DNA of 61,686 bases. Origin: an uncultured Lachnospiraceae bacterium (lineage in GTDB: Bacteria; Bacillota; Clostridia; Lachnospirales; Lachnospiraceae). The position numbers were made by a program, and so were the translations under genes. The number at the start of each line of letters is the position of its first letter. Positions within the stretch are counted from its first letter, which is position 1. The stretch lies in contig CALWET010000039.1 in the NCBI GenBank assembly GCA_944377385.1, positions 1 to 61,686 on the forward strand. Reading direction: 5' to 3'. The notes beneath the pieces were generated by a model. The model was not told the origin of the DNA and did not search any database. It saw only the letters and a program-made list of their open reading frames with translations. Shown here one piece after another: positions 1-9,915 of this stretch.

Positions 1-29
1 TCGATATGACAAGATTGTCAACACGAAAT

Positions 30-46
30 AAAAAAAAAAAAAAAAA
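30..46 (+). repeat. 17-A homopolymer
   Basis: Seventeen consecutive A residues sit near the window edge. They begin inside a TAA (29-31) that closes the frame continuing into the Gp37-like gene. Any upstream coding sequence must change frame here or lie in another frame. It could be a slippage site, a decayed gene start or an assembly artefact, and the sequence does not say which. Confidence 0.9.
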
Positions 47-1018
47 GCTCTTAAAAATGTAACGCTTATTGGAGGTGATGGGGAAGGCCCTGAAAGAAAA
101 TATTATTCTGTAGGCTCTGTATCTGGTATCGATAGAAGAGAAATGTTTACAGATGCTCGTGATATTTCTTCAACTGACGAAAATGGAGAGGTCATCTCCA
201 CAGAAAATTATAATGCCCTTCTTGAGCAAAGAGGAAAAGAAGATCTCGGAGAGAATATTGACATCGCTACTTTTGAGGGAGAAATAGAACCTGGAAGGAC
301 TTACGAATTTGGTGTTGACTATAATCTTGGAGACATTGTTGAAGTTGAAAACGAGTATGGAATATCAGCAGCTCCTCGAATTATCGAGATAGTAGAGTGT
401 ACTGATGCTTCGGGTTATTCGATGGTTCCAACGTTTGATATGGATAACATTGAGATAAGCGGTCCCGATGTAGATGCAGTATTCCTTACTACTGCACAGC
501 AGAAAGTTCTTGCAACTGCCTCGGGGGGGGTATTAGTGATACCTCGTGCTTCCGCAGCAGTTGATCGGGAGATAATCTACTCGAATGAGCTTAGCAAAGT
601 AACTACCGTGTCTGATGATGATTCAGTTATTTTAGGTGTGAGTGGAGATTTTATGTCAATGACGATGGGACAGTTTACCAAATGTTTTCTAAACCGATTA
701 GTATATAAAAGCCAGAAATATTATACTTCACCTTATTTAAGATCTTCAGTTAGTGTTTACAGATATGGAAATGTTGTAACGTTATATTACAACTCCGATT
801 CTCAAAATTTACCTCTTGGGAATGTGACGTTGTTTACTTTAGATGAGGAGTATAGGCCATATATTGGTTATATCATGATGGGATGCAATTATTGTGATGT
901 GCAGATTACAATACAATCTAATGGAAATGTTGATGCCTATAATTATAGCGGTGCTGCTCAACCTAACGCTCGAAACTTTAGATTTGCAGCCACATACATA
1001 GGACAAGATTTATCATAA
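32..1018 (+). CDS. Phage tail protein, Gp37-like family (5' end missing)
   Basis: The reading frame is open from base 32, just after a TAA inside a 17-A run, to a TAA at 1016-1018. The first ATG in frame is at 143, but conserved-looking sequence (GGDGEGPERKYYS, GIDRREMFTDARDIS) is already being read before it, so the true start lies upstream. The order of DRRE..TDARD, LLEQRG, FEGEI and YNLGDIVEV resembles the C-terminal half of siphovirus ReqiPepy6 Gp37-like proteins, which sit at the tail tip between the tail tube and the fibres. The neighbouring tail fibre supports this. The last 130 residues look like a separate beta-rich domain. An in-frame run of eight G lies at 523-530. The family call rests on recalled motif similarity. 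Confidence 0.6.
   Translation, partial: KKKKKALKNVTLIGGDGEGPERKYYSVGSVSGIDRREMFTDARDISSTDENGEVISTENYNALLEQRGKEDLGENIDIATFEGEIEPGRTYEFGVDYNLGDIVEVENEYGISAAPRIIEIVECTDASGYSMVPTFDMDNIEISGPDVDAVFLTTAQQKVLATASGGVLVIPRASAAVDREIIYSNELSKVTTVSDDDSVILGVSGDFMSMTMGQFTKCFLNRLVYKSQKYYTSPYLRSSVSVYRYGNVVTLYYNSDSQNLPLGNVTLFTLDEEYRPYIGYIMMGCNYCDVQITIQSNGNVDAYNYSGAAQPNARNFRFAATYIGQDLS
523..530 (+). repeat. 8-G tract in the Gp37-like gene
   Basis: Eight G residues are read as part of codons TCG GGG GGG GTA within the Gp37-like gene. The frame is open at this length. A gain or loss of one G would shift frame and truncate the last 160 residues. It is the same kind of tract seen in the fibre-tip genes at 2995, 3983, 4497 and 4926. 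Confidence 0.9.
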
Positions 1019-1033
1019 AAGGAGAAATTCAAA

Positions 1034-2635
1034 ATGGCAGTAACAAGCGGGTTCTTTAATGCCCAGAATCAAGACAGACTATATAACGCTGATCAGATGT
1101 CAGAGATATTTAATGGAATAATCAACGATGGAGTATTTGCAAGTATCGGAACTGCTTTTGGAGTAAAGGCTACTACAGGAAATGTTATTAATGTTGGCAT
1201 AGGTAGAGCGTGGTTTAACAGCCGATGGATCTATAACGATTCTATACTTGCGTTAACAGCTGAAGATTCCGAAATGATACTTGATCGTATAGATGCAGTT
1301 GTTATAGAGATAAATAATGATCTTTCTGTAAGAGCTGGCTCTATTAAGGTTATCAAGGGAACCCCAGCTACAGAGCCACAGAATCCTGAAATGGCATCTA
1401 CTGAGTATGTTCATCAGTATCCGCTTTGTTATATTTTAAGGAAAGCAGGTTCTACCTCTATTACTCAGTCAAATATAACAAATATGATAGGAACATCCTC
1501 CTGTCCTTATGTTACTGGTATATTGCAGGTTCAGGACATAGATAACATAGTTGCTCAATGGCAGGCTCAGTGGGTGGATTTCTTTGACGATATAAGCGGA
1601 GATATGACCGATGCTGAGGTTGAATTTAAGCTTTCCTTTGAACAATGGTTTGCAAATCTTCAGGATCAGCTGGACGAAAACCAGGCGGGAAATCTTCAGC
1701 ATCAGATCGATAATATAAAGAAGTTAACTACAGTATACCTTGACAAAGATAATTGGTCTGAAGAATTTCCATATAAGCAAACTGTAGAAGTTGCTGGCTT
1801 TAAGGAAAATGATGCTCCTTCCTTGACGATGGTAATTGAGGATAATGCTACCGAGTCAGAGATAAAAGAGTATCGTAAAGCATTTGGTTCAATATACTAT
1901 GGTAATGTAAATGAGACATCAGCAACCATTTATGCGGTTAAGAAACCAGAAATTAATTTTACCATTGGTCTAAGTGGGGGTAGCGGAGCTGGTGCAGTTA
2001 CATTGTCAGAAACAGGTGAACCCACAGCTCCGGTTGATTTGACAGGTTATCTTTTTGTAAATCCCGATGAAGAGGTAGACCCTCCTACGGCCGAGGACAT
2101 ACCATACCTTAATGCCGATAAGCTTGGCGGGCAGCCGCCTTCGTTTTATTCTAAATCGGATAATGTATCTGATAAGTTTTCCGAGGAAAAAACATATAAA
2201 GTTGGGGATTATTGCATATATCCTGAAGACAGCACTTTGTATAAGTTTACAGACGGTAAGGAACCAGGGGCTTGGGATGAGACAAAGGTTGAAGCAACAA
2301 CTGTAGCTGGAGAACTTAGTGTGTTAAATTCGTCGGTGGCAGTGCCTATATCTTCTGAAGTCGGAAATATGAGCGGTTTTGCTTACCGGATGGGTAAATT
2401 TGTGATATTTAGTATGTATATATATTTAACTCAAAGCATTTCACCGCAAACAAATACGCCTCTTATAACATTCGAGGGCATAACCGCTGCAGAAAGATAT
2501 GATTGTCCTATTGTAGGAACTAATCAAGTATCAATGGCTTCTCTTCCCAAAAATACGAATGCCATAACGAATAATAATAAAATGCTTAATAATGAAGATC
2601 TGTATTTTATGAATGGCGTGTTTGTAGTAAATTAA
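1034..2635 (+). CDS. Phage tail fibre / receptor-binding protein
   Basis: This 533-residue protein has a ribosome site (AAAGGAGA) just upstream and starts 15 bases after the Gp37-like stop. The N-terminal 150 residues (MAVTSGFFNAQNQDRLYNAD..) match the type of baseplate or fibre attachment domain found at the start of Firmicutes phage receptor-binding proteins. Residues 180-235 are helical and probably coiled coil. NADKLGGQPPSFYSK near residue 360 is a tail-fibre motif (A.KLGG..P..F). A short carbohydrate-binding-like stretch follows (TYKVGDYCIYPEDSTLYKF). The last 90 residues (FAYRMGKFVIFS...YFMNGVFVVN) resemble the C-terminus of the first fibre-tip gene (2959-3445), so the tip is a shared module. 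It probably recognises the host surface. Confidence 0.65.
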   Translation: MAVTSGFFNAQNQDRLYNADQMSEIFNGIINDGVFASIGTAFGVKATTGNVINVGIGRAWFNSRWIYNDSILALTAEDSEMILDRIDAVVIEINNDLSVRAGSIKVIKGTPATEPQNPEMASTEYVHQYPLCYILRKAGSTSITQSNITNMIGTSSCPYVTGILQVQDIDNIVAQWQAQWVDFFDDISGDMTDAEVEFKLSFEQWFANLQDQLDENQAGNLQHQIDNIKKLTTVYLDKDNWSEEFPYKQTVEVAGFKENDAPSLTMVIEDNATESEIKEYRKAFGSIYYGNVNETSATIYAVKKPEINFTIGLSGGSGAGAVTLSETGEPTAPVDLTGYLFVNPDEEVDPPTAEDIPYLNADKLGGQPPSFYSKSDNVSDKFSEEKTYKVGDYCIYPEDSTLYKFTDGKEPGAWDETKVEATTVAGELSVLNSSVAVPISSEVGNMSGFAYRMGKFVIFSMYIYLTQSISPQTNTPLITFEGITAAERYDCPIVGTNQVSMASLPKNTNAITNNNKMLNNEDLYFMNGVFVVN

Positions 2636-2654
2636 ATGCAAAAATAACACAATA

Positions 2655-2966
2655 ATGAACAGAAGAGTTTTTGGCAGAAACATTCGATATCTTGCAAAAA
2701 TAAATAATATTTCCGCATTAGAGCTGTCGGAAAAATTGGGAGTTTCTGAAAATGACATCAAAATGGTTATGCAGAATAGAAGAACACTCCCCCGTCAGTC
2801 GATCATAGAAATGGCGTCGATTTTCAATGTTGATCCGATCTCTCTTTACGCTGAGGAATTATATCCTTGCGGAGAGTTTTCAAATGAAATAGACGAAATA
2901 ATGGATATTATAGAGATCTATTGTACAGTGATAGATTGCTTAAACTATGGGAGGGGTCATGGCTAA
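2655..2966 (+). CDS. Small HTH (Xre-like) regulator inside the fibre array
   Basis: A 103-residue protein with a Xre/Cro-type helix-turn-helix at residues 5-60 (IRYLAKINNISALELSEKLG, then a recognition-helix-like VSENDIKMVMQ) and an acidic C-terminal helix. It lacks an obvious ribosome binding site (AACACAATA precedes the ATG), so translation may be weak or depend on the upstream gene. Its 3' end overlaps the start of the first fibre-tip gene at 2959 by eight bases. A DNA-binding protein between structural tail genes is unusual. It could regulate this late operon or be a moron gene with its own role. The HTH call is good, the target unknown. Confidence 0.6.
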   Translation: MNRRVFGRNIRYLAKINNISALELSEKLGVSENDIKMVMQNRRTLPRQSIIEMASIFNVDPISLYAEELYPCGEFSNEIDEIMDIIEIYCTVIDCLNYGRGHG

Positions 2967-3445
2967 TATACCTATAAAACAAGTAAATATTGATGGGGGG
3001 GAGTAATGCGCCAAGTAAAGCATATCCGCTTACCCATTTAAAGGCTGTTTATGATGATGCTGGCAAAAATCTCTATGATATTTTAACAGAGATTCAGTCA
3101 TCCATAACTGACTTGTCAAATAAGCTTACGCCAGTACCGGTAGAAATGCTTTTTGGAGATGGTTTAAATATTGGAACTGGAAACACTTTTGCTTATAGAA
3201 TAGGAAACATAGTTGTATTTAGTTTCTTATTCAATACTACAAAAGAACTTTCAACTCAATCCATTATAGTTACTTTTAAAGACACCATAGCAATCCAAAG
3301 GTATGACTTTGGCGGGTATACAATAAATGATATTATCTATGACTTTTGTATAATCGGAGGAAGAGGTTATATGGACCTTAATGGAGAGACCATTCCTAAA
3401 AGTGACAACTGGGTATTCTGCAACGGCGCATTTGTATGCAATTAA
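2959..3445 (+). CDS. Fibre-tip cassette A (phase OFF, 7 G)
   Basis: A strong ribosome site (GGGAGGGG) precedes the ATG at 2959, which reads MANIPIKQVNIDGG and then meets TAA at 3004 because a G run (2995-3001) has seven residues. With six or nine G the frame would continue into NAPSKAYPLTHLKAVYDDAG and on to the stop at 3443-3445, giving about 161 residues. The first 45 residues form a module shared with cassettes B-E (IPIK..., YPLT, AVYD..G..L..IL). The remainder resembles the last 90 residues of the long fibre at 1034-2635. A weak in-frame TTG at 2990 could give a little product without the module. Confidence 0.65.
2995..3001 (+). repeat. 7-G tract, cassette A
   Basis: Seven G residues lie between GAT (codon 12 from the ATG at 2959) and AGTAATGCG. 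At this length the cassette is out of frame. Multiples of three (six or nine) would open it. Confidence 0.9.
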
Positions 3446-3458
3446 AAAAGGAGGATAT

Positions 3459-3875
3459 ATGTCTGATATAGTAATTAAGCAGATAAATGAGCAAACTACC
3501 TCCCCCCGACCTATATATCCATTAACATCAACAAAAGCAGTATATGACACTAATGGAGAAGTCTTAGAAAACATATTAATTGGAATAAATGCGTCCCTTT
3601 TAAAGTGTGCATTTAAAACCATTGAGGTAAAACCTACAAGCGGTCCTTCGAATAACTATGGGGGATATTATGTTAGTAGTAATATTCCATCACTTGAAAG
3701 TCTTGGAATTGAGGGGGCTCTTATAGGCACTCCTATATTGGCAAGTTACGGTGATACTGTAGACGCTAATGTAGAATGTCTTGTAAGGCTAAATGCTTCG
3801 AGAAAAATGGTTTTTGCCTCGTCCCCATTGGCAGGAAGAACAGTAAGTATAACATTTGTTTATTTATATATTTGA
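3459..3875 (+). CDS. Fibre-tip cassette B (in frame, no G tract)
   Basis: A 138-residue protein with a ribosome site AAGGAGG seven bases before ATG 3459. The N-terminal module (SDIVIKQINEQ..., IYPLTSTKAVYDTNGEVLENIL) matches the other cassettes. The remaining 95 residues are unrelated in sequence to A, C, D or E and look beta-rich. It has six C (3502-3507) in the module, reading TCC CCC CGA, where others have G runs. At that length the frame is open, and slippage there is possible but less likely. Probably an alternative tail-tip or receptor-binding subunit. It is the only cassette without a long G run and could be constitutively made. Confidence 0.6.
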   Translation: MSDIVIKQINEQTTSPRPIYPLTSTKAVYDTNGEVLENILIGINASLLKCAFKTIEVKPTSGPSNNYGGYYVSSNIPSLESLGIEGALIGTPILASYGDTVDANVECLVRLNASRKMVFASSPLAGRTVSITFVYLYI

Positions 3876-3890
3876 AGAAAGAGGTATAAC

Positions 3891-4372
3891 ATGGTAGAAA
3901 TACCTATTAAACACATATACCAAGATGACGGTAACAATGGCTCTAAATGCTACCCTATAACTCACTCGGAGGCAGTTTTCACGGGGGGGGTAAAACACTG
4001 ACAAAAGTTTTAGATGAGATGAGTACATTGATGGCACTTAATACTGCGTCAGGAACAATAGCTTCTGTATATCATCAAGATAGAACAATTTGTAAGGTAT
4101 CGCTTGATCCAGGAAAATATTTGATATTAGCTTCAGTAATTATCGACATAGATATAGAAGGAATAGTTAGCGCTGGCATATATGTTCCTTATGGCAAAAG
4201 TACATTATTTCCAGGCATTCCTTCAAAATCAACGTCAAAAGCCGGTGGTGGTGTAGTCAATTGGGGGATTGTAACAGTCAATGAAACTTCTGAAATAGAA
4301 CTTAGATCCTATGGTTATATAGATAGTTCATATAATCTCAAAGGTTATATGGCCGCATTACGCATTAAATAA
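3891..4372 (+). CDS. Fibre-tip cassette C (phase OFF, 8 G)
   Basis: ATG 3891 follows an AAGAGG site and reads MVEIPIKHIYQDD..., CYPITHSEAVFTGG, then VKH and TGA at 3999-4001. The eight-G run at 3983-3990 puts the rest (GKTLTKVLDEMSTLM..., ending at 4372) in another frame. Nine or six G would restore a protein of about 160 residues with the shared module plus a distinct beta-rich C-terminal domain that contains GYMAALRIK at its end. The downstream frame shows no other disruption, so this is an intact gene in an OFF state rather than a decayed one. Confidence 0.65.
3983..3990 (+). repeat. 8-G tract, cassette C
   Basis: Eight G residues follow AC at codon 31 of the cassette read from ATG 3891. 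At this length the frame runs into TGA ten bases later. Six or nine G would open it. Confidence 0.9.
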
Positions 4373-4398
4373 AATATTTGAGCATATAGGAGACAATA

Positions 4399-4887
4399 AT
4401 GAGTGAAATACCTATAAAATATACATATGAAAATACAGGAGACAATCCTGGCAGTAAAATATACCCCATAACCTCCACGGATGCTGTGTTTGATATGGGG
4501 GGGGTAAAGCTTGCCGATAGGCTGGATGCGATAGATAAATCTTTACAAGCGCCGTCCACGCGGGAAACCATATTGAATAATATAACCGATAAAGAAAGGC
4601 ATACATTTTCTTATTCTGGATATAAATATTTGGTGCTATCGGCAGCATTTCCTAATGCAGGAAAATCAGAACAATTCGTACCTATAGAAGCCCTTAAAGT
4701 GCAAGAGGGGTTCAATATAGTGCTTCATAATGTGATGTTTGACACATCAAATTATCAAGGTGTGATGCAAATAGCACTGAGTACAGAAACCACGAATGAA
4801 GGAATAATAGAAGTATGGATGGTGGACGAAAATCACGGTTCCGGGGTGAATGCAGCTCCATACTACAATATTTATGGACTAAAATAA
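4399..4887 (+). CDS. Fibre-tip cassette D (phase ON, 8 G)
   Basis: A 162-residue protein starting at ATG 4399 after an AGGAG site. The module reads MSEIPIKYTYENTGDN, KIYPITSTDAVFDMGG, VKLADRLDAI. The eight-G run at 4497-4504 lies in the module at the same codons as in cassette C, but here the frame is open. The C-terminal 110 residues (..HTFSYSGYKYLVLSAAF.. to NIYGLK) are not similar to the other tips. Likely an alternative receptor-binding tip. Function is inferred from position and the common module. Confidence 0.65.
   Translation: MSEIPIKYTYENTGDNPGSKIYPITSTDAVFDMGGVKLADRLDAIDKSLQAPSTRETILNNITDKERHTFSYSGYKYLVLSAAFPNAGKSEQFVPIEALKVQEGFNIVLHNVMFDTSNYQGVMQIALSTETTNEGIIEVWMVDENHGSGVNAAPYYNIYGLK
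4497..4504 (+). repeat. 8-G tract, cassette D
   Basis: Eight G residues follow GATAT and are read as ATG GGG GGG GTA. The cassette is in frame at this length and would be truncated after a change of one or two G. Confidence 0.9.
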
Positions 4888-4901
4888 TATAGGAGGTACA
4901 G

Positions 4902-5390
4902 ATGGATAATATTAAACCCCTTTCCGGGGGGGGTAACGTACCTATAAAGTATCTGCAATACAAAGATGCAGACGGCTTAACCAAGACCATGTATGGTATT
5001 ACTATACTGGATGCGGTATTTGATGAAAATGGTCAAAAGCTAAGCGATATATTGCAAAATTATGACTGTGAACTTGGCAGTAATGAGAATGGAAGCTACG
5101 CCAAATTTGGGAATGGGTTGTTGATATGCTGGTATTTCAAGATATTATCAATAGCATTCAGCAATAGTTATGCGAGTATGTATCAAGCAAATATCAATTT
5201 GACATTCCCGCATCCATTTATAGGGGTTCCCGTAGCTGCATGCGGTCAATTTAGATGGTCAAGTTCAGCGTCGTGGGGGCAAGTAGTTTCGACAGATGCC
5301 ACAACAATCTCATTGCGAGGCCTTGATTATATACAAAGGCCCGCTGGTGATACAGACGTTATGTACATAGCAATCGGTAAATGGAAATGA
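4902..5390 (+). CDS. Fibre-tip cassette E (phase ON, 8 G), gp53-like tip
   Basis: A 162-residue protein with site AGGAGG before ATG 4902. Here the G run (4926-4933) is at codons 9-11, before the shared module (VPIKYLQYKDADG, MYGITILDAVFDENG, KLSDIL). This differs in position from C and D. The C-terminal part (NENGSYAKFGNGLLICWYF, LTFPHPFIGVPVAACGQF, MYIAIGKWK) has the look of gp53-like tail-fibre knob domains, in which a YxKFxNGLxIxW strand is followed by a FPxPF strand. A rho-independent terminator follows at 5400. Probable receptor-binding tip, currently expressed. Confidence 0.7.
   Translation: MDNIKPLSGGGNVPIKYLQYKDADGLTKTMYGITILDAVFDENGQKLSDILQNYDCELGSNENGSYAKFGNGLLICWYFKILSIAFSNSYASMYQANINLTFPHPFIGVPVAACGQFRWSSSASWGQVVSTDATTISLRGLDYIQRPAGDTDVMYIAIGKWK
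4926..4933 (+). repeat. 8-G tract, cassette E
   Basis: Eight G residues follow TTTCC and are read as TCC GGG GGG GGT AAC. The frame is open. A change by one or two G would abort the cassette near its start. Confidence 0.9.
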
Positions 5391-5399
5391 TATTTAGAT

Positions 5400-5421
5400 G
5401 AGCCTTTAAGGGCTCTTTTTT
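5400..5421 (+). terminator. Terminator after the fibre-tip array
   Basis: A short GAGCC/GGCTC stem with a six-base loop is followed directly by six T. It would end or reduce transcription between the cassette array and the glycine-rich adhesin gene. Confidence 0.7.
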
Positions 5422-5451
5422 ATTGCGTAAATTTATGGAAGGGAGTTCTTC

Positions 5452-6681
5452 ATGGCTGATGTATTGATTCATGGTGGAGCTGGCGCAGCAGTTAATTCTG
5501 ATGATTTAACAGCTGTAGCGGCTCACGTTCTTGCTGGTGATACTTTTATGGGCGCCGATACAAACGACGAAGCTGGTGTCGGTACTATGGAAGTTCAATC
5601 TGTAGTGTCTTTTAAGACTGCCGTCAGCGGGGCAAATGTAACCTTTACCTGGCAAAATCCATCTAAAGGCCCGTATGGCGGCGTGATCATTAGAGCAAAA
5701 GAAGGGAGTTATCCTACCTCAGTAACAGATGGAACACAAGTTTATAAAGGAACAGGCACTTCTTATCAATTAGAAGCCATGTCTTCTGCGACCTGGGCTG
5801 CTACAAAAGATAACACGACCTGGTATTTCAGCCTTTGGATGTACTGTGAGACCTCGTTAGGCACGATCTATTCACAGCTCGCGCAGGCCACAGCAGTGAT
5901 TTTTGATCTTCAAGGCACACAGGTATTTACTTCGTCAGGGGTATTCACAGTACCAGCAGGAGTATATGAAATTGACGTGTTTCTTGTTGGAGCAGGAGCT
6001 GGGGGCAACGGCCCCTTTACGTGGTCCGGCTATCAAGAAATGGGATGCTATCGTAATGGTCCTGGCGGAGGAAGCGGATATACCGTCACTTATAAAAAAA
6101 TAAAGGTTACGCCAGAGCAACAGTTTAACGTAACAATTGGTGCAGGCGGAAGAGCAGGATCTAACGGAACTGCTGGAGGTAATGGCGGGCAAACCAAGTT
6201 TGGGACATATACTGCAAATGGTGGATATATAGGTCATTTCTCAACATCTAAATCTTATACAAATAGAGAAAAATATGGAGGGAATGGTGGATCTGCCGGT
6301 GGAGCAGGAAGCGAATATGTATACGTGTCAACTGGTGGAGGATCATCCAGGACAAACCCGTCTTGTGATGGGGCGAGTAATGGCGCCAACGCCAAATATT
6401 ATACTACAGCCCCAGCATACTCGCCATCACAAGGTTTGGGTCAGGGAAAATCGACAAGAGCGTTTGAAGAATCCAACCAAGCATTATACGCCGGTGGCGG
6501 TGGTGGTGCAGCAGGTGCAGCAGGAGGGGCTGGCGGAGGTGGCAAAGGTGGAACTGTCAGCTCCAACGGCGTTAGTGGCACAGCAAACACAGGAAGCGGT
6601 GGCGGTGGCGGATATGAATACCGATATACCACGGCCGGAGCCGGAGGATCAGGAATAGTTATTGCTCGTTGGGGATATTAA
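5452..6681 (+). CDS. Glycine-rich phage tail adhesin
   Basis: A 409-residue protein with site AAGGGAG before ATG 5452. The N-terminal 45 residues (MADVLIHGGAGAAVNSDDLT) resemble phage fibre attachment segments. Residues 55-145 look like a fibronectin-III or lectin-like beta domain. From about residue 150 (GTQVFTSSGVFTVPAGV) to the end the sequence is built from glycine-rich loops (GAGAGGNG, GGSGYTV, GAGGRAGSNG, GGGGGAAGAAGG). This composition is typical of glycine-rich adhesin domains in phage tail proteins, where loops between polyglycine-like strands bind host receptors. The variable loops would set specificity. It probably acts with the phase-variable tip proteins. Confidence 0.7.
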   Translation: MADVLIHGGAGAAVNSDDLTAVAAHVLAGDTFMGADTNDEAGVGTMEVQSVVSFKTAVSGANVTFTWQNPSKGPYGGVIIRAKEGSYPTSVTDGTQVYKGTGTSYQLEAMSSATWAATKDNTTWYFSLWMYCETSLGTIYSQLAQATAVIFDLQGTQVFTSSGVFTVPAGVYEIDVFLVGAGAGGNGPFTWSGYQEMGCYRNGPGGGSGYTVTYKKIKVTPEQQFNVTIGAGGRAGSNGTAGGNGGQTKFGTYTANGGYIGHFSTSKSYTNREKYGGNGGSAGGAGSEYVYVSTGGGSSRTNPSCDGASNGANAKYYTTAPAYSPSQGLGQGKSTRAFEESNQALYAGGGGGAAGAAGGAGGGGKGGTVSSNGVSGTANTGSGGGGGYEYRYTTAGAGGSGIVIARWGY

Positions 6682-6691
6682 AGGAGGTATT

Positions 6692-7180
6692 ATGGCTTAT
6701 TTTCAAAGAATATGGGCACAGATAGATTCTCATGGAGTCGTTCAAAATAGGATGGTTTGTGATAATTATGAGGAGGCCAATCGAATAACACGTTGTACTT
6801 TTGGAGACGAGTCTTTGGCCGTTGAAATAAATCAATGGAATGTAGATATAGGGAATAAATATATCGACGGAATTTTTTATAGAACTGATCCAGAAACCGG
6901 AGAAAATATTGAGTGCGAATATATCCCAGACACAGAAGAGATGGCATCTCAAAACTTTAATGATATTACAGACGTACAAGAAGCTATTGCAGAAGTATAC
7001 GAAATGGTTATAGATGACCCAACACCAATTCGTATTATGACAATGTCCGTTAATTCAAGAGCAATGTCGAGTGGAATGGCAAAAATATATTTTGCATTGA
7101 TAGACAAGAAAATAAAGACTATCGACGATGTTCCAGAACAAATAAAGGCGGAAGTAGAAGCACTTCTATCAAATAAATAA
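6692..7180 (+). CDS. Phage tail-associated protein, unknown function
   Basis: A 162-residue protein with an ideal AAGGAGG site before ATG 6692, ten bases after the adhesin stop. The N-terminal 90 residues (YFQRIWAQIDSHGVVQNRMV, DIGNKYIDGIFYR) look like short phage proteins encoded beside tail fibres. The C-terminal 40 residues (RAMSSGMAKIYFALIDKKIK, IDDVPEQIKAEVEALL) are a helical motif found in XkdX/XkdW-like phage proteins. Those are of unknown role but usually lie between the fibres and lysis genes, as here. No catalytic motif is visible. Possibly a fibre assembly chaperone, but that is a guess from position. Confidence 0.45.
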   Translation: MAYFQRIWAQIDSHGVVQNRMVCDNYEEANRITRCTFGDESLAVEINQWNVDIGNKYIDGIFYRTDPETGENIECEYIPDTEEMASQNFNDITDVQEAIAEVYEMVIDDPTPIRIMTMSVNSRAMSSGMAKIYFALIDKKIKTIDDVPEQIKAEVEALLSNK

Positions 7181-7202
7181 AATATTACGGGATAGGAGAG
7201 TG

Positions 7203-7808
7203 ATGCCAATGGGACAGCAAGAGTTTATACAGATATTTGGCAATATAAGTCTTTCTGATGTTTTGGTCTACGCTATAGCTATTGAATGGATATATTCTGG
7301 AGCTAAGCGTCTGTACAACTATTTTAAATCGCAATATAAAGAGACAGAATTAAAAGACGAAGCTTTAACGAATGCTATTAGATTACCCGATTTCAAAGAG
7401 GAATCCATAAAGCGAGAGCATCGTATAGAGGAACGCTTTGATAAGATCGAAAAAGACCATAATAAACGGTTCGATAAGATAGAAAAAACATTAGAGTCTA
7501 TACAAAGTAGGATGGATGAAGCTGACAAAAGGCAGCAGCAAAAAGATCTAAGTGATACTCAGACATCATTACTTCAAGCATTTCAATATTATACCAATCC
7601 AAAGCGTAATCCACTGAAAGCCTGGACATCATTAGAGAAGAAATCATTTATGGATACTTTTGAAATATATAAATCCAAAGGTGGAGACGGCTATATGGAT
7701 GAAAATGTTGCACCAGCAATGGCGACTCTTACGGAAATATCTATGACTGATGTGGAAGCTATAAATGAATTAATGAGATCAAGGAACCAGATTTATGAAA
7801 AACAATAA
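7203..7808 (+). CDS. Phage coiled-coil protein before lysis cassette
   Basis: A 201-residue protein. A GGAG site at 7195 allows ATG 7203 (4-base spacing) or ATG 7209 (10-base spacing). The N-terminus has a moderately hydrophobic helix (SLSDVLVYAIAIEWIYSG). Residues 50-110 form a charged coiled coil with a repeat ERFDKIEKDHNKRFDKIEKT. The C-terminal 70 residues are globular. Small phage proteins with a membrane anchor plus coiled coil often stand next to the holin, as in XhlA-like haemolysins, but the order here (hydrophobic part first) differs. It overlaps the next gene by 14 bases, so the two are translationally linked. Confidence 0.45.
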   Translation: MPMGQQEFIQIFGNISLSDVLVYAIAIEWIYSGAKRLYNYFKSQYKETELKDEALTNAIRLPDFKEESIKREHRIEERFDKIEKDHNKRFDKIEKTLESIQSRMDEADKRQQQKDLSDTQTSLLQAFQYYTNPKRNPLKAWTSLEKKSFMDTFEIYKSKGGDGYMDENVAPAMATLTEISMTDVEAINELMRSRNQIYEKQ

Positions 7809-8157
7809 CAAAACGAATACCGAAACAACAAAAATAGTTCACACCGACGTAGATATTATGGGGACTATTTACGAAATGACAGATGATTATTGCAAAAATG
7901 ATGACTATGGAGGTGAAACTAGGCTATTTACTAAGGAAATACATCTTAGACCTAAGGACGAAATAGTAGAAGTAAAAGATGCAACCCCTATAGAGAAAGA
8001 ATTAGGCTTCAATCAGACTTTTAGACATGAGATAGTGCATGCATTTTTCTTTGAATGTGGAATGACTGAGTATTGTATGGATGAAACATTAGTAGAATTT
8101 CTGGCATCAACGGCTCCTAAGCTGTTTGCAATATTTAAAAAACATAATTTACTTTAA
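7795..8157 (+). CDS. Small HExxH metallopeptidase-like phage protein
   Basis: A 120-residue protein overlapping the preceding gene by 14 bases. It contains HEIVHAFFFECG at residues 79-90, an exact HExxH zinc-peptidase motif followed 26 residues later by a glutamate (VEFLAS). That spacing would suit a third ligand in a minimal gluzincin-like fold. The N-terminal half has short beta strands (KIVHTDVDIMGTIYEM, RLFTKEIHLRP). Small phage proteins of this type are known but poorly characterised. It could act in tail processing, lysis or host interaction. The motif is seen and the activity is inferred. Confidence 0.5.
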   Translation: MKNNNKTNTETTKIVHTDVDIMGTIYEMTDDYCKNDDYGGETRLFTKEIHLRPKDEIVEVKDATPIEKELGFNQTFRHEIVHAFFFECGMTEYCMDETLVEFLASTAPKLFAIFKKHNLL

Positions 8158-8171
8158 GGGAGGTGATAACA

Positions 8172-8402
8172 ATGAAGTTTCTTGATATTTTCAAGATGAA
8201 AAGTGAGACATACGATAAGCTTAAATATGTAGCGTTGGTCTTTTTGCCAATAGCAGCGAGTTTGTATGGTGGATTGGCTGAGGTTTGGGGATGGCCTTAT
8301 GGAACTCAGATTCAAACAAGTATATCTCTAATTAATACTGCGCTTGGTGGCTGGTTGCTTATAAGTACGAACCAGTACAACAAAACAAAGTCATCTACCT
8401 AA
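8172..8402 (+). CDS. Phage holin, Dp-1 type
   Basis: A 76-residue membrane protein starting at ATG 8172 behind GGGAGG. A GTG at 8163 lies inside the ribosome site and is unlikely. The sequence YDKLKYVALVFLPIAASLYG followed by a WGWPYGTQI turn and a second hydrophobic helix (LINTALGGWLLISTNQYNK) is the pattern of the Dp-1/SPP1-like holin family. Holins form membrane lesions that release the endolysin, which is encoded 0.5 kb downstream. Confidence 0.8.
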   Translation: MKFLDIFKMKSETYDKLKYVALVFLPIAASLYGGLAEVWGWPYGTQIQTSISLINTALGGWLLISTNQYNKTKSST

Positions 8403-8475
8403 TACGGAGGTGATCCGACAATCTCCCTTCACAGGGTTAAGTGAAAAAATGATATTTTAGAGGAGGAATAATTAA

Positions 8476-8796
8476 ATGAACGAGAATGATAACATCATAC
8501 TGGATGAGAACGGTGTTGAGAACATGGAAGGACATAAGGGCTCTAAGCCTATTGCTGAAGGTATTCCTTTTTACATTGGAGATGAAATGAGCAAATATCT
8601 TCCATTTAAAGAGGAGTGGCTCCCAAAGATAGCAGCAAAACTTAGTGAAATGAAAGCTATGGGAGATCATGATTTTATTATACTTTCGAACATGCTCGAA
8701 GGGCCTGCCACTGGAGTTGACTATGATGACAAGACTGGAGAAATAAGAATAGCCGATGGCTGGACTGTTAAGGACGGCTATATTGTAAGGGCTTGA
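8476..8796 (+). CDS. Hypothetical phage protein in lysis cassette
   Basis: A 106-residue acidic protein with an AGGAGGAAT site before ATG 8476. It has no signal peptide, membrane helix or recognisable domain. The middle (FYIGDEMSKYLPFKEEWLPK) is probably helical and the end (DYDDKTGEIRIADGWTVKDG) beta. It sits between holin and endolysin and is followed by a terminator. I do not recognise a family. Confidence 0.55.
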   Translation: MNENDNIILDENGVENMEGHKGSKPIAEGIPFYIGDEMSKYLPFKEEWLPKIAAKLSEMKAMGDHDFIILSNMLEGPATGVDYDDKTGEIRIADGWTVKDGYIVRA

Positions 8797-8867
8797 TCCT
8801 CCCTATATTAGGGTTGATCATATATAAGCATCGTCTATGCTCAAAGATGATGCGCTTTTCGTGCTGT

Positions 8868-8899
8868 GGAGAGGGTTTCGCTACGCCCTCTCCATTTTT
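8868..8899 (+). terminator. Terminator before endolysin
   Basis: An 8-bp perfect stem GGAGAGGG/CCCTCTCC with a 10-base loop is followed by A and five T. It separates the holin transcript from the endolysin gene, or attenuates read-through. Confidence 0.7.
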
Positions 8900-8913
8900 A
8901 AAGGAGATTATTT

Positions 8914-9915
8914 ATGAAAATATACGGTTGTAATAATGTATATGATGCTATAAAAGTAGCAGAAAAATGCCTGGGGTATCTTGAAAAGGCCAATATGAGA
9001 GATCTTGGTGACCTAACACCAGAAGGGAAGGTGCGAAATGCTGGATATGGTAATTACACGCTGTACTGGAGTTGGTATGATGAAGTCACTGACGATAATT
9101 ACCAAGGATCAGCTTATTGCGCTGGGTGGCTTTCAGTTGGATATTTCGTGCGAGCTTTTGGTGTAAATCTTGCCAAAAAGCTCTTGTGCGGGGATTTGTT
9201 CATATGGTGCCCTTCCGGATATGAACAGTTCAAGAAGGCTGGACGTATATACGATCGTCCTAAAGTAGGAGATGTTGTCTTCTATTGGAGCGAAAGCCTT
9301 GGACGATGGGGGCATACAGGATTAGTAGTTAAGGAACTCGATGATGGATGGGTTGCTATTGAAGCGAACACCTCATCTGGAAATGATGTTGTTGTACGAA
9401 ACGGTGGAGCAACTGTCAGAAAATCTTATAAGTATGGAGGAAAGAAAGTAGCTTTCGGCAGACCTCCATATGAAGAGAATGGGATATCTACGCAGGATCC
9501 TAATACTATGATTACTACATATAACATTAACACAAACACCATGTTCGGTATTATAATAGATGCTGACACTCTTAATGTAAGAAATCTTCCTACTGTTAAC
9601 GGTTCTAAAGTAATTGGTCAGCTGAAGAAGGGAATGAGTGTCAAACCAACACTAAAATCTTTTGATGAAAAAGGTACACGATGGTATTATGTTCCTGATA
9701 TAAATGGATGGATCAGCGGTAACTATGTTCATGGATGGATCCAGGAAGCTGACGGACGATGGTGGTATGCTTTGTACGGGGGCGGATGGTATACTGGAGA
9801 TGTATATGTCATCAATGAGGTAGCTTACCTGTTTGATGATGCGGGGTACATGGTCGAAGAGCCTACAATTCTTTATCCAGATAAGAATGGTGCTCTACAT
9901 TCAAAGAAGAGATAA
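8914..9915 (+). CDS. Endolysin: CHAP/NlpC-like cysteine peptidase + SH3 + cell-wall repeats
   Basis: A 333-residue protein with AAGGAG before ATG 8914 and no signal peptide, as expected for holin-dependent release. Residues 1-185 are a CHAP/NlpC-P60-type papain-like domain. The probable nucleophile is Cys in YCAGWLS, the His is in GHTGLVV, and AIEAN provides the polar third position. RPKVGDVVFYW is the conserved strand before the His. Residues 210-270 are an SH3-like domain (ADTLNVRNLPTVNG, KKGMSVKP). The end has choline-binding-like repeats (GWIQEADGRWWYALYGGGWY), a type that also occurs in host surface proteins at 10964, 57355 and 58949. It cuts the host peptidoglycan. Confidence 0.85.
   Translation: MKIYGCNNVYDAIKVAEKCLGYLEKANMRDLGDLTPEGKVRNAGYGNYTLYWSWYDEVTDDNYQGSAYCAGWLSVGYFVRAFGVNLAKKLLCGDLFIWCPSGYEQFKKAGRIYDRPKVGDVVFYWSESLGRWGHTGLVVKELDDGWVAIEANTSSGNDVVVRNGGATVRKSYKYGGKKVAFGRPPYEENGISTQDPNTMITTYNINTNTMFGIIIDADTLNVRNLPTVNGSKVIGQLKKGMSVKPTLKSFDEKGTRWYYVPDINGWISGNYVHGWIQEADGRWWYALYGGGWYTGDVYVINEVAYLFDDAGYMVEEPTILYPDKNGALHSKKR

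What the first reader, a model, noticed from the sequence alone, without database searches (positions are those of the whole stretch)
2959..5390. Phase-variable array of five alternative phage fibre-tip genes with G-tract switches
Five short genes in a row each have their own ribosome site, a common N-terminal module of about 40 residues (IPIK.., YPIT, AVFD..G..L..IL) and unrelated C-terminal domains. Four contain an in-frame run of 7-8 G within the module. The common module probably docks on one site of the tail and the different ends bind different host receptors. Slippage in the runs would switch each tip on or off by itself, giving a phage population with mixed host range. Poly-G switching of receptor-binding genes is known in Campylobacter Fletchervirus phages. 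A tandem cassette array of this kind in a Firmicutes prophage I have not seen described.
Basis: partly seen in the sequence, partly recalled or inferred. Interest (0 to 1): 0.93.

Follow-up and report, generated by a model that had tools for sequence, protein, structure and literature searches.

The report
Switchable set of virus tail tips
A virus tail region in a bacterial genome holds five neighbouring genes with one shared front part and five different ends, and runs of seven or eight G in four of them likely let copying slips switch each predicted host-binding tip on or off, which would give one virus a changing choice of hosts.

Summary
The five genes, their shared N-terminal module and the G runs are real. 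All five G>=7 runs of the 61.7 kb window lie in this tail region, which holds 4 of the 8 G>=8 runs of the 1.58 Mb assembly. The runs lie at three different places relative to the module, so they arose more than once. The neighbouring fixed fibre is an N-terminal relative of an antibody-proven lactococcal receptor-binding protein. A different phage type in another genome of the genus shows the same design with another module: three tandem tips, two with homologous runs (G10 and G7, both out of frame as assembled), one tract-free and in frame. Best reading: a phase-variable bank of tail tips, one tract-free, four likely switched by G-run slippage. The precedent is the poly-G receptor-binding genes of Campylobacter Fletchervirus phages. 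Length variation within a population was not observed; protein records of relatives only hint at it. New variant of a known kind.

The parts
143..1018 (+). C-terminal part of a Gp37-like tail protein, with its own G8 run
   Evidence: PF14594, E 1.2e-19; phrog_538 minor tail protein
523..530 (+). G8 run in the Gp37-like gene, in frame as assembled
   Evidence: the other two frames stop 1 and 10 codons after the run
1034..2635 (+). Fixed fibre: N-terminal relative of LC3/r1t receptor-binding proteins, C-terminal head like that of g1
   Evidence: phiLC3 orf343 29.1%, residues 8-228, E 8e-14; head 28% to g1 over 106 residues, E 4e-9
2655..2966 (+). Small helix-turn-helix gene overlapping the start of g1; no Shine-Dalgarno seen; role unknown
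   Evidence: phrog_8, E 2e-9
2959..3445 (+). Tip gene g1, out of frame as assembled: short frame 2959-3006, head frame to 3445 (an ATG at 2993 overlaps the run)
   Evidence: P0004
2995..3001 (+). G7 run of g1, in the middle of the module
3459..3875 (+). Tip gene g2, no G run, open from start to end
   Evidence: C6 at 3502-3507
3891..4372 (+). Tip gene g3, out of frame as assembled: module frame 3891-4001, head frame to 4372
3983..3990 (+). G8 run of g3, near the end of the module
4399..4887 (+). Tip gene g4, in frame as assembled
   Evidence: relative P0002 81%
4497..4504 (+). G8 run of g4, near the end of the module
   Evidence: other frames stop 0 and 4 codons after it
4902..5390 (+). Tip gene g5, in frame as assembled; head is a known tail-fibre tip
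   Evidence: phrog_2712 tail fiber protein, E 5e-13; Pseudomonas phage tips
4926..4933 (+). G8 run of g5, before the module
   Evidence: other frames stop 0 and 3 codons after it
5400..5415 (+). Terminator-like hairpin with T run after g5
   Evidence: 7 such sites found against 4.2 in shuffles, so weak alone
5452..6681 (+). Glycine-rich fibre-like gene; none of its 28 Gly-Gly pairs is written GGG-GGG
   Evidence: PF21722, E 6.7e-22

Best explanation
Five tandem phage genes share an N-terminal module and bear different heads, and the runs of seven or eight G in four of them likely act as slippage switches that would turn single predicted receptor-binding tips on or off. Shown here: gene order, shared module, separate ribosome-site-like stretches, the runs, the in-frame state of g2, g4 and g5 and the out-of-frame state of g1 and g3 in the assembly, and quick stops in the other frames after the runs of g4 and g5. 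Inferred: the module docks the tips on the tail beside the fixed fibre; the heads bind different surface glycans; replication slippage changes each gene's state independently; the tract-free g2 and the fixed fibre stay on, so that the particle always has some tip. The phage population would then carry a mixture of tip sets against hosts whose surface varies.
Confidence: 0.7

Rival explanations
1. Static or decaying cassettes: g1 and g3 are dead by single frameshifts or by assembly error at the G runs, and nothing switches.
For: Two of four tract genes are out of frame in the one assembly held; no read data; run lengths of relatives not seen.
Against: The head frames behind the runs of g1 and g3 are free of stops, and g3's head is kept at 97% and 81% in two other records. 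Runs at several non-homologous places and a second array with runs of G10 and G7 at one homologous site are not expected from decay.
Confidence: 0.14
2. Slippage in translation or transcription: the G runs make ribosomes or polymerase slip, so both product forms are made all the time and the DNA does not switch.
For: Runs of one base are slippery sites in general (recalled).
Against: The frame offset differs among the four genes (none in g4 and g5, and not the same in g1 and g3), so no single programmed shift fits all.
Confidence: 0.07
3. Recombination store: the near-repeat module starts let heads be exchanged between cassettes and with the fixed fibre, and the G runs are incidental.
For: Repeats of about 20-40 nt at 71-83% identity at the module starts; g1's head resembles the fixed fibre's head.
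Against: Does not explain the excess of G runs nor the out-of-frame states; every cassette has its own ribosome-site-like stretch, so it looks built for expression in place. Can act together with switching.
Confidence: 0.06
4. A retroelement (DGR) or an invertible segment varies the tips.
For: Butyrivibrio phage Arawn, a relative in the fixed fibre, has an annotated reverse transcriptase two genes downstream.
Against: No reverse transcriptase (PF00078) in the assembly; no inverted repeat pair in 2600-5500; the one resolvase match is on another contig. The assembly is only 84% complete.
Confidence: 0.03

Closest known systems
Poly-G phase-variable receptor-binding genes of Campylobacter Fletchervirus phages (Sorensen et al. 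2021, Cell Rep 35:109214; not held, seen only as cited in passages of PMC10877375, PMC11959909, PMC11868660)
   Same: Homopolymeric G runs in phage receptor-binding genes; several such genes in one phage (up to four there); host genus with G runs in surface-glycan genes
   Different: Other phage and host; short tips on a common N-terminal module in tandem, one of them tract-free; temperate-phage setting; no DNA match to any phage record; switching shown there, inferred here
BppL-type receptor-binding proteins of lactococcal TP901-1-like phages
   Same: Size near 160 residues (160-175 in the table of PMC5301393), N-terminal attachment part and C-terminal head (recalled)
   Different: One kind of tip per phage there; no sequence match here; fold comparison inconclusive
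LC3/r1t receptor-binding protein (P335 sub-group III)
   Same: N-terminal ~220 residues related to the fixed fibre
   Different: There the protein is the listed receptor-binding protein, with no BppU, BppA or separate tip (table); here five tip genes follow
Tail-fibre switching by DNA inversion (Mu, P1; recalled) and by diversity-generating retroelements (Bordetella phage; cited in PMC10579305)
   Same: A phage keeps or makes alternative tips
   Different: Needs a recombinase with inverted repeats, or a reverse transcriptase; neither found

Membership tests
Poly-G phase-variable phage receptor-binding genes (Fletchervirus type) | G run inside the reading frame of receptor-binding or tail-tip genes | tested here: met
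   four tip genes and the Gp37-like gene; receptor binding itself predicted
Poly-G phase-variable phage receptor-binding genes (Fletchervirus type) | Run length varies within a phage population and changes expression | not testable with these tools
   no reads; relatives' DNA not available; protein records P0002, P0003, P0005, P0006 only hint
Poly-G phase-variable phage receptor-binding genes (Fletchervirus type) | Sequence kinship with Fletchervirus | tested here: not met
   megablast of 1-9000 against 50,697 phage records: no match; tblastn of g4, g2, g3 head, g1 head: no match; g5: 35 records, 32 of them Pseudomonas phages
BppL-type receptor-binding protein | Short protein with N-terminal docking part and receptor-binding head | tested here: inconclusive
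   size and two-part layout fit; docking and binding untested
BppL-type receptor-binding protein | Sequence or fold kinship with TP901-1/p2 receptor-binding proteins | tested here: inconclusive
LC3/r1t-type receptor-binding protein (fixed fibre 1034-2635) | N-terminal domain shared | tested here: met
   29-30% over residues 8-228, E about 1e-13 to 1e-14
Diversity-generating retroelement | Reverse transcriptase near a variable tail gene | tested here: not met
   PF00078: 0 matches in the assembly, which is 84% complete and holds only an end of the phage on this contig
Invertible tail-fibre segment | Inverted repeats around alternative tips and an adjacent recombinase | tested here: not met
   0 inverted repeat pairs of 14 nt or more in 2600-5500; the single PF00239 match is on contig C44

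The most novel reading that the evidence does not exclude
Prophages of this bacterial genus carry combinatorial tail-tip banks: tandem tip cassettes on a common docking module, most with their own poly-G switch, next to a tract-free tip that is always on. Two phages of different type (siphovirus-like here, contractile-type baseplate in L067) reached the design independently, as the counterpart of hosts whose surface-glycan and DNA-methylase genes carry the same kind of run. With four independent runs one lysogen could release up to 16 tip sets.
Probability: 0.55. Interest if true: 0.87.

Novelty: new variant of a known kind. Interest (0 to 1): 0.76.

Why it matters
[quoted passage not shown] If these arrays switch, phage-encoded poly-G switching has arisen in another host branch and in a richer form: ready-made alternative tips in combination. 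It would make testable why some phages keep many tips, how a temperate phage follows a host that varies its surface, and why the host range of a prophage cannot be read from one consensus sequence. Records such as P0003 and P0005 suggest that gene calling shortens such genes, so more cases may be hidden.

Tried and rejected
DGR and inversion: set aside. Relatives of the array: the search for related loci with g5 gave one locus (L007); with the fixed fibre and with g4 none was confirmed; with the module alignment none in viral contigs, and none in genome contigs with two alignments. The module was in none of the 24 other genus genomes at E <= 0.01 (best 0.047) and weakly (E 0.003) in 1 of 298 other family genomes. 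DNA patterns for run flanks in viral contigs: 0 and 0. PDB by sequence: nothing for the fixed fibre, g5 or alignment A3 at E <= 1. Structures: both models weak; TP901-1 BppL is not among the rows shown for g4, and nothing useful came for g5. I first took the TA right after many runs for a selected stop; TAA or TAG make up 21 of 37 TA cases, no more than half by chance, so I dropped that. Pfam on tract-bearing genes of the genus: 10 ORFs that I picked because they looked like clusters, out of 92 unique runs read: 4 acyltransferases, 2 glycosyltransferases, 1 UbiA, 2 DNA methylases, 1 without a match; a biased choice. Fetched but not analysed further: L091, L094, L095. No call named the organism; 'Firmicutes, Lachnospiraceae-like' is my inference from gene content and phage relatives.

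Full report
What is there. The window is contig C39 of an unnamed 1.58 Mb assembly in 116 contigs, 84% complete. Bases 1 to about 9.9 kb hold late genes of a phage: a Gp37-like tail protein (PF14594), a fibre (1034-2635), a small HTH gene, the five tip genes, a glycine-rich fibre-like gene (PF21722) and further small late genes. Chromosomal genes follow from about 10.9 kb (by eye beyond the families named). I read it as a prophage end; the rest of the phage is not on this contig.

The observation. Genes g1 to g5 start at 2959, 3459, 3891, 4399 and 4902, each after a Shine-Dalgarno-like stretch. They share a module (IPIK, then YPIT, AVFD, G, L) and differ in their heads: blastp among the heads finds nothing better than E 0.05. 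G runs of 7, 8, 8 and 8 lie in g1, g3, g4 and g5; g2 has none. As assembled g2, g4 and g5 are open from start to end. g1 and g3 meet a stop soon after the run, while a long frame goes on behind it. A further G8 lies in the Gp37-like gene at 523-530.

Is it more than chance? The window has five G runs of 7 or more in 61,686 bases, all on the + strand and all within 523-4933. The assembly has eight runs of G8 or more on both strands, four of them here. Synonymous shuffling of 15 tail and lysis frames (for g1 and g3 their downstream open frames) gives a mean of 0.55 runs of G>=7; 1 of 3000 shuffles reached the observed 5. From the rest of the assembly 0.011 runs of G>=8 are expected in the 4.4 kb stretch and 4 are seen (Poisson P 6.5e-10), but the stretch was picked after seeing the runs. 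Glycine content does not demand them: of 51 Gly-Gly pairs in these frames, 5 are written GGG-GGG, all at the runs.

Repeated origin. Relative to the module the runs sit in its middle (g1), near its end (g3, g4) and before it (g5), and one sits in another gene (523-530). Shared descent cannot explain the set. I take this as the strongest sequence sign of selection for switchability.

What the genes are. The fixed fibre 1034-2635 matches 159 phage records, none over 80% of its length; the 20 rows listed match within residues 1-309, among them lactococcal LC3 orf343 and r1t and Butyrivibrio phages. For LC3 this protein was identified as the receptor-binding protein by antibody neutralisation (PMC5301393, passages). 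The end of the fibre resembles the g1 head (28% over 106 residues, E 4e-9). The g5 head is a known tail-fibre tip (phrog_2712; 44% to the end of a 379-residue protein next to a tail component of a Pseudomonas phage; also the end of a 480-residue protein in L007). For the g4 head a weak model (mean pLDDT 52) has as best structural neighbours the side fibre of monocin and the C-terminal domains of phage K gp144; Z-values of 7.8 to 8.0 are only middling, and most rows below are unrelated immunoglobulin-like folds. For g5 (mean pLDDT 53), 19 of Foldseek's 50 rows are lactococcal receptor-binding or baseplate chains, all at E above 0.02; the second look did not bear this out. So: tail tips, supported by sequence for g5 and by place and module for the others; receptor binding and docking are inferred.

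A second array. Following G8 runs through 25 genomes of the genus (91 rows in 21 genomes) led to L067, in another genome of the genus. It is another phage type (baseplate wedge protein, phrog_6). Behind a small fibre-like gene stand three tip genes that share a different module (66-69% identity over 68-136 residues) and have different ends. Tips 1 and 3 have nearly the same flanks around a G10 and a G7, and both are out of frame from their first ATG; tip 2 carries mixed glycine codons in place of a run and is in frame. In both phages one tip is tract-free and open and others carry runs. In 26 viral contigs that encode relatives of this second module none has a G run of 7 or more at the start of the module gene; 4 have one elsewhere. 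A third prophage of the genus (L190) has an in-frame G8 in a single fibre gene. The first module was found nowhere else with confidence.

Hints of switching. g4's relative P0002 (81%) is full length. P0003, whose longest contig has 2557 bases, equals the g4 head from an internal TTG on, 103 of 104 residues with the start residue as the difference. g3's relatives P0005 (97%; longest contig 8148 bases, as for P0002) and P0006 (81%) begin behind the run. Alleles with other run lengths would look like this to a gene caller, but contig ends or start choice could do the same. No DNA of these contigs was available here.

Mechanism. Slippage in the runs during replication (established for such runs in Campylobacter; inferred here) would move each tip gene in or out of frame on its own. 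The tract-free g2 and the fixed fibre would keep the particle able to attach. In g4 and g5 a wrong frame meets a stop within four codons behind the run, so an off state makes a short peptide. In g1 an ATG overlaps the run and is in frame with the head (P0004), so a shortened g1 may still be made.

Host side. In genomes of the genus G>=8 runs occur in or at acyltransferase, glycosyltransferase and DNA-methylase genes (10 ORFs chosen by me for Pfam). Of 92 unique runs read, 48 lie in a sense open stretch of 100 or more codons; many others are intergenic. A host that varies its surface with the same kind of run would be a fitting opponent. This is inference, and I did not show such genes in the window's own assembly, whose four other G8 runs I did not classify.

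Known or new. Poly-G switching of receptor-binding genes is known from Fletchervirus, which have up to four such proteins (PMC10877375, passages); the primary paper is not held. Ten library searches, seen as listings, with passages from six papers, showed no tandem tip array with poly-G switches in a Firmicutes phage; most subscription journals are not in that library. It works like the Fletchervirus system; by sequence it is not a member of it. I file it as a new variant of a known kind.

Noticed in passing
genus genomes: G>=8 runs are followed by TA in 37 of 92 unique runs against 11 of 201 for G5 and 73 of 1081 for G4 in the same loci. Exact G7 runs number 92 in 25 genomes, no more than G8-and-longer runs (91 rows under a narrower pattern), so long runs are in excess. 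The TA bias is unexplained.
   Followed up: partly
window 29-46: In the Gp37-like gene an in-frame TAA followed by a run of 17 A lies at the contig edge, although the family match goes on across it: another variable run, or an assembly-edge error.
   Followed up: partly
window 2655-2966: A small helix-turn-helix gene without a clear ribosome site stands between fixed fibre and tip array and overlaps the start of g1; a possible regulator of the array.
   Followed up: no
L117:2574 and L118:4901: Two near-identical viral contigs differ in a G run (G7 and G9) just before the ATG of a gene behind a module-2-type tail gene: a natural example of run-length difference between close phages.
   Followed up: no
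L190 (G019:C7), 7196-7203: Third prophage of the genus with an in-frame G8 inside a fibre gene.
   Followed up: partly
L060, L061, L064, L075: G8-G9 runs in or at acyltransferase, glycosyltransferase, UbiA and DNA-methylase genes, several in one stretch: probable phase-variable surface and methylation genes of the host genus.
   Followed up: partly
L092 (Butyrivibrio phage Arawn), 10910-12055: A phage that shares the fixed fibre's N-terminal domain has an annotated reverse transcriptase two genes downstream: perhaps another way to vary tips at the same place.
   Followed up: no
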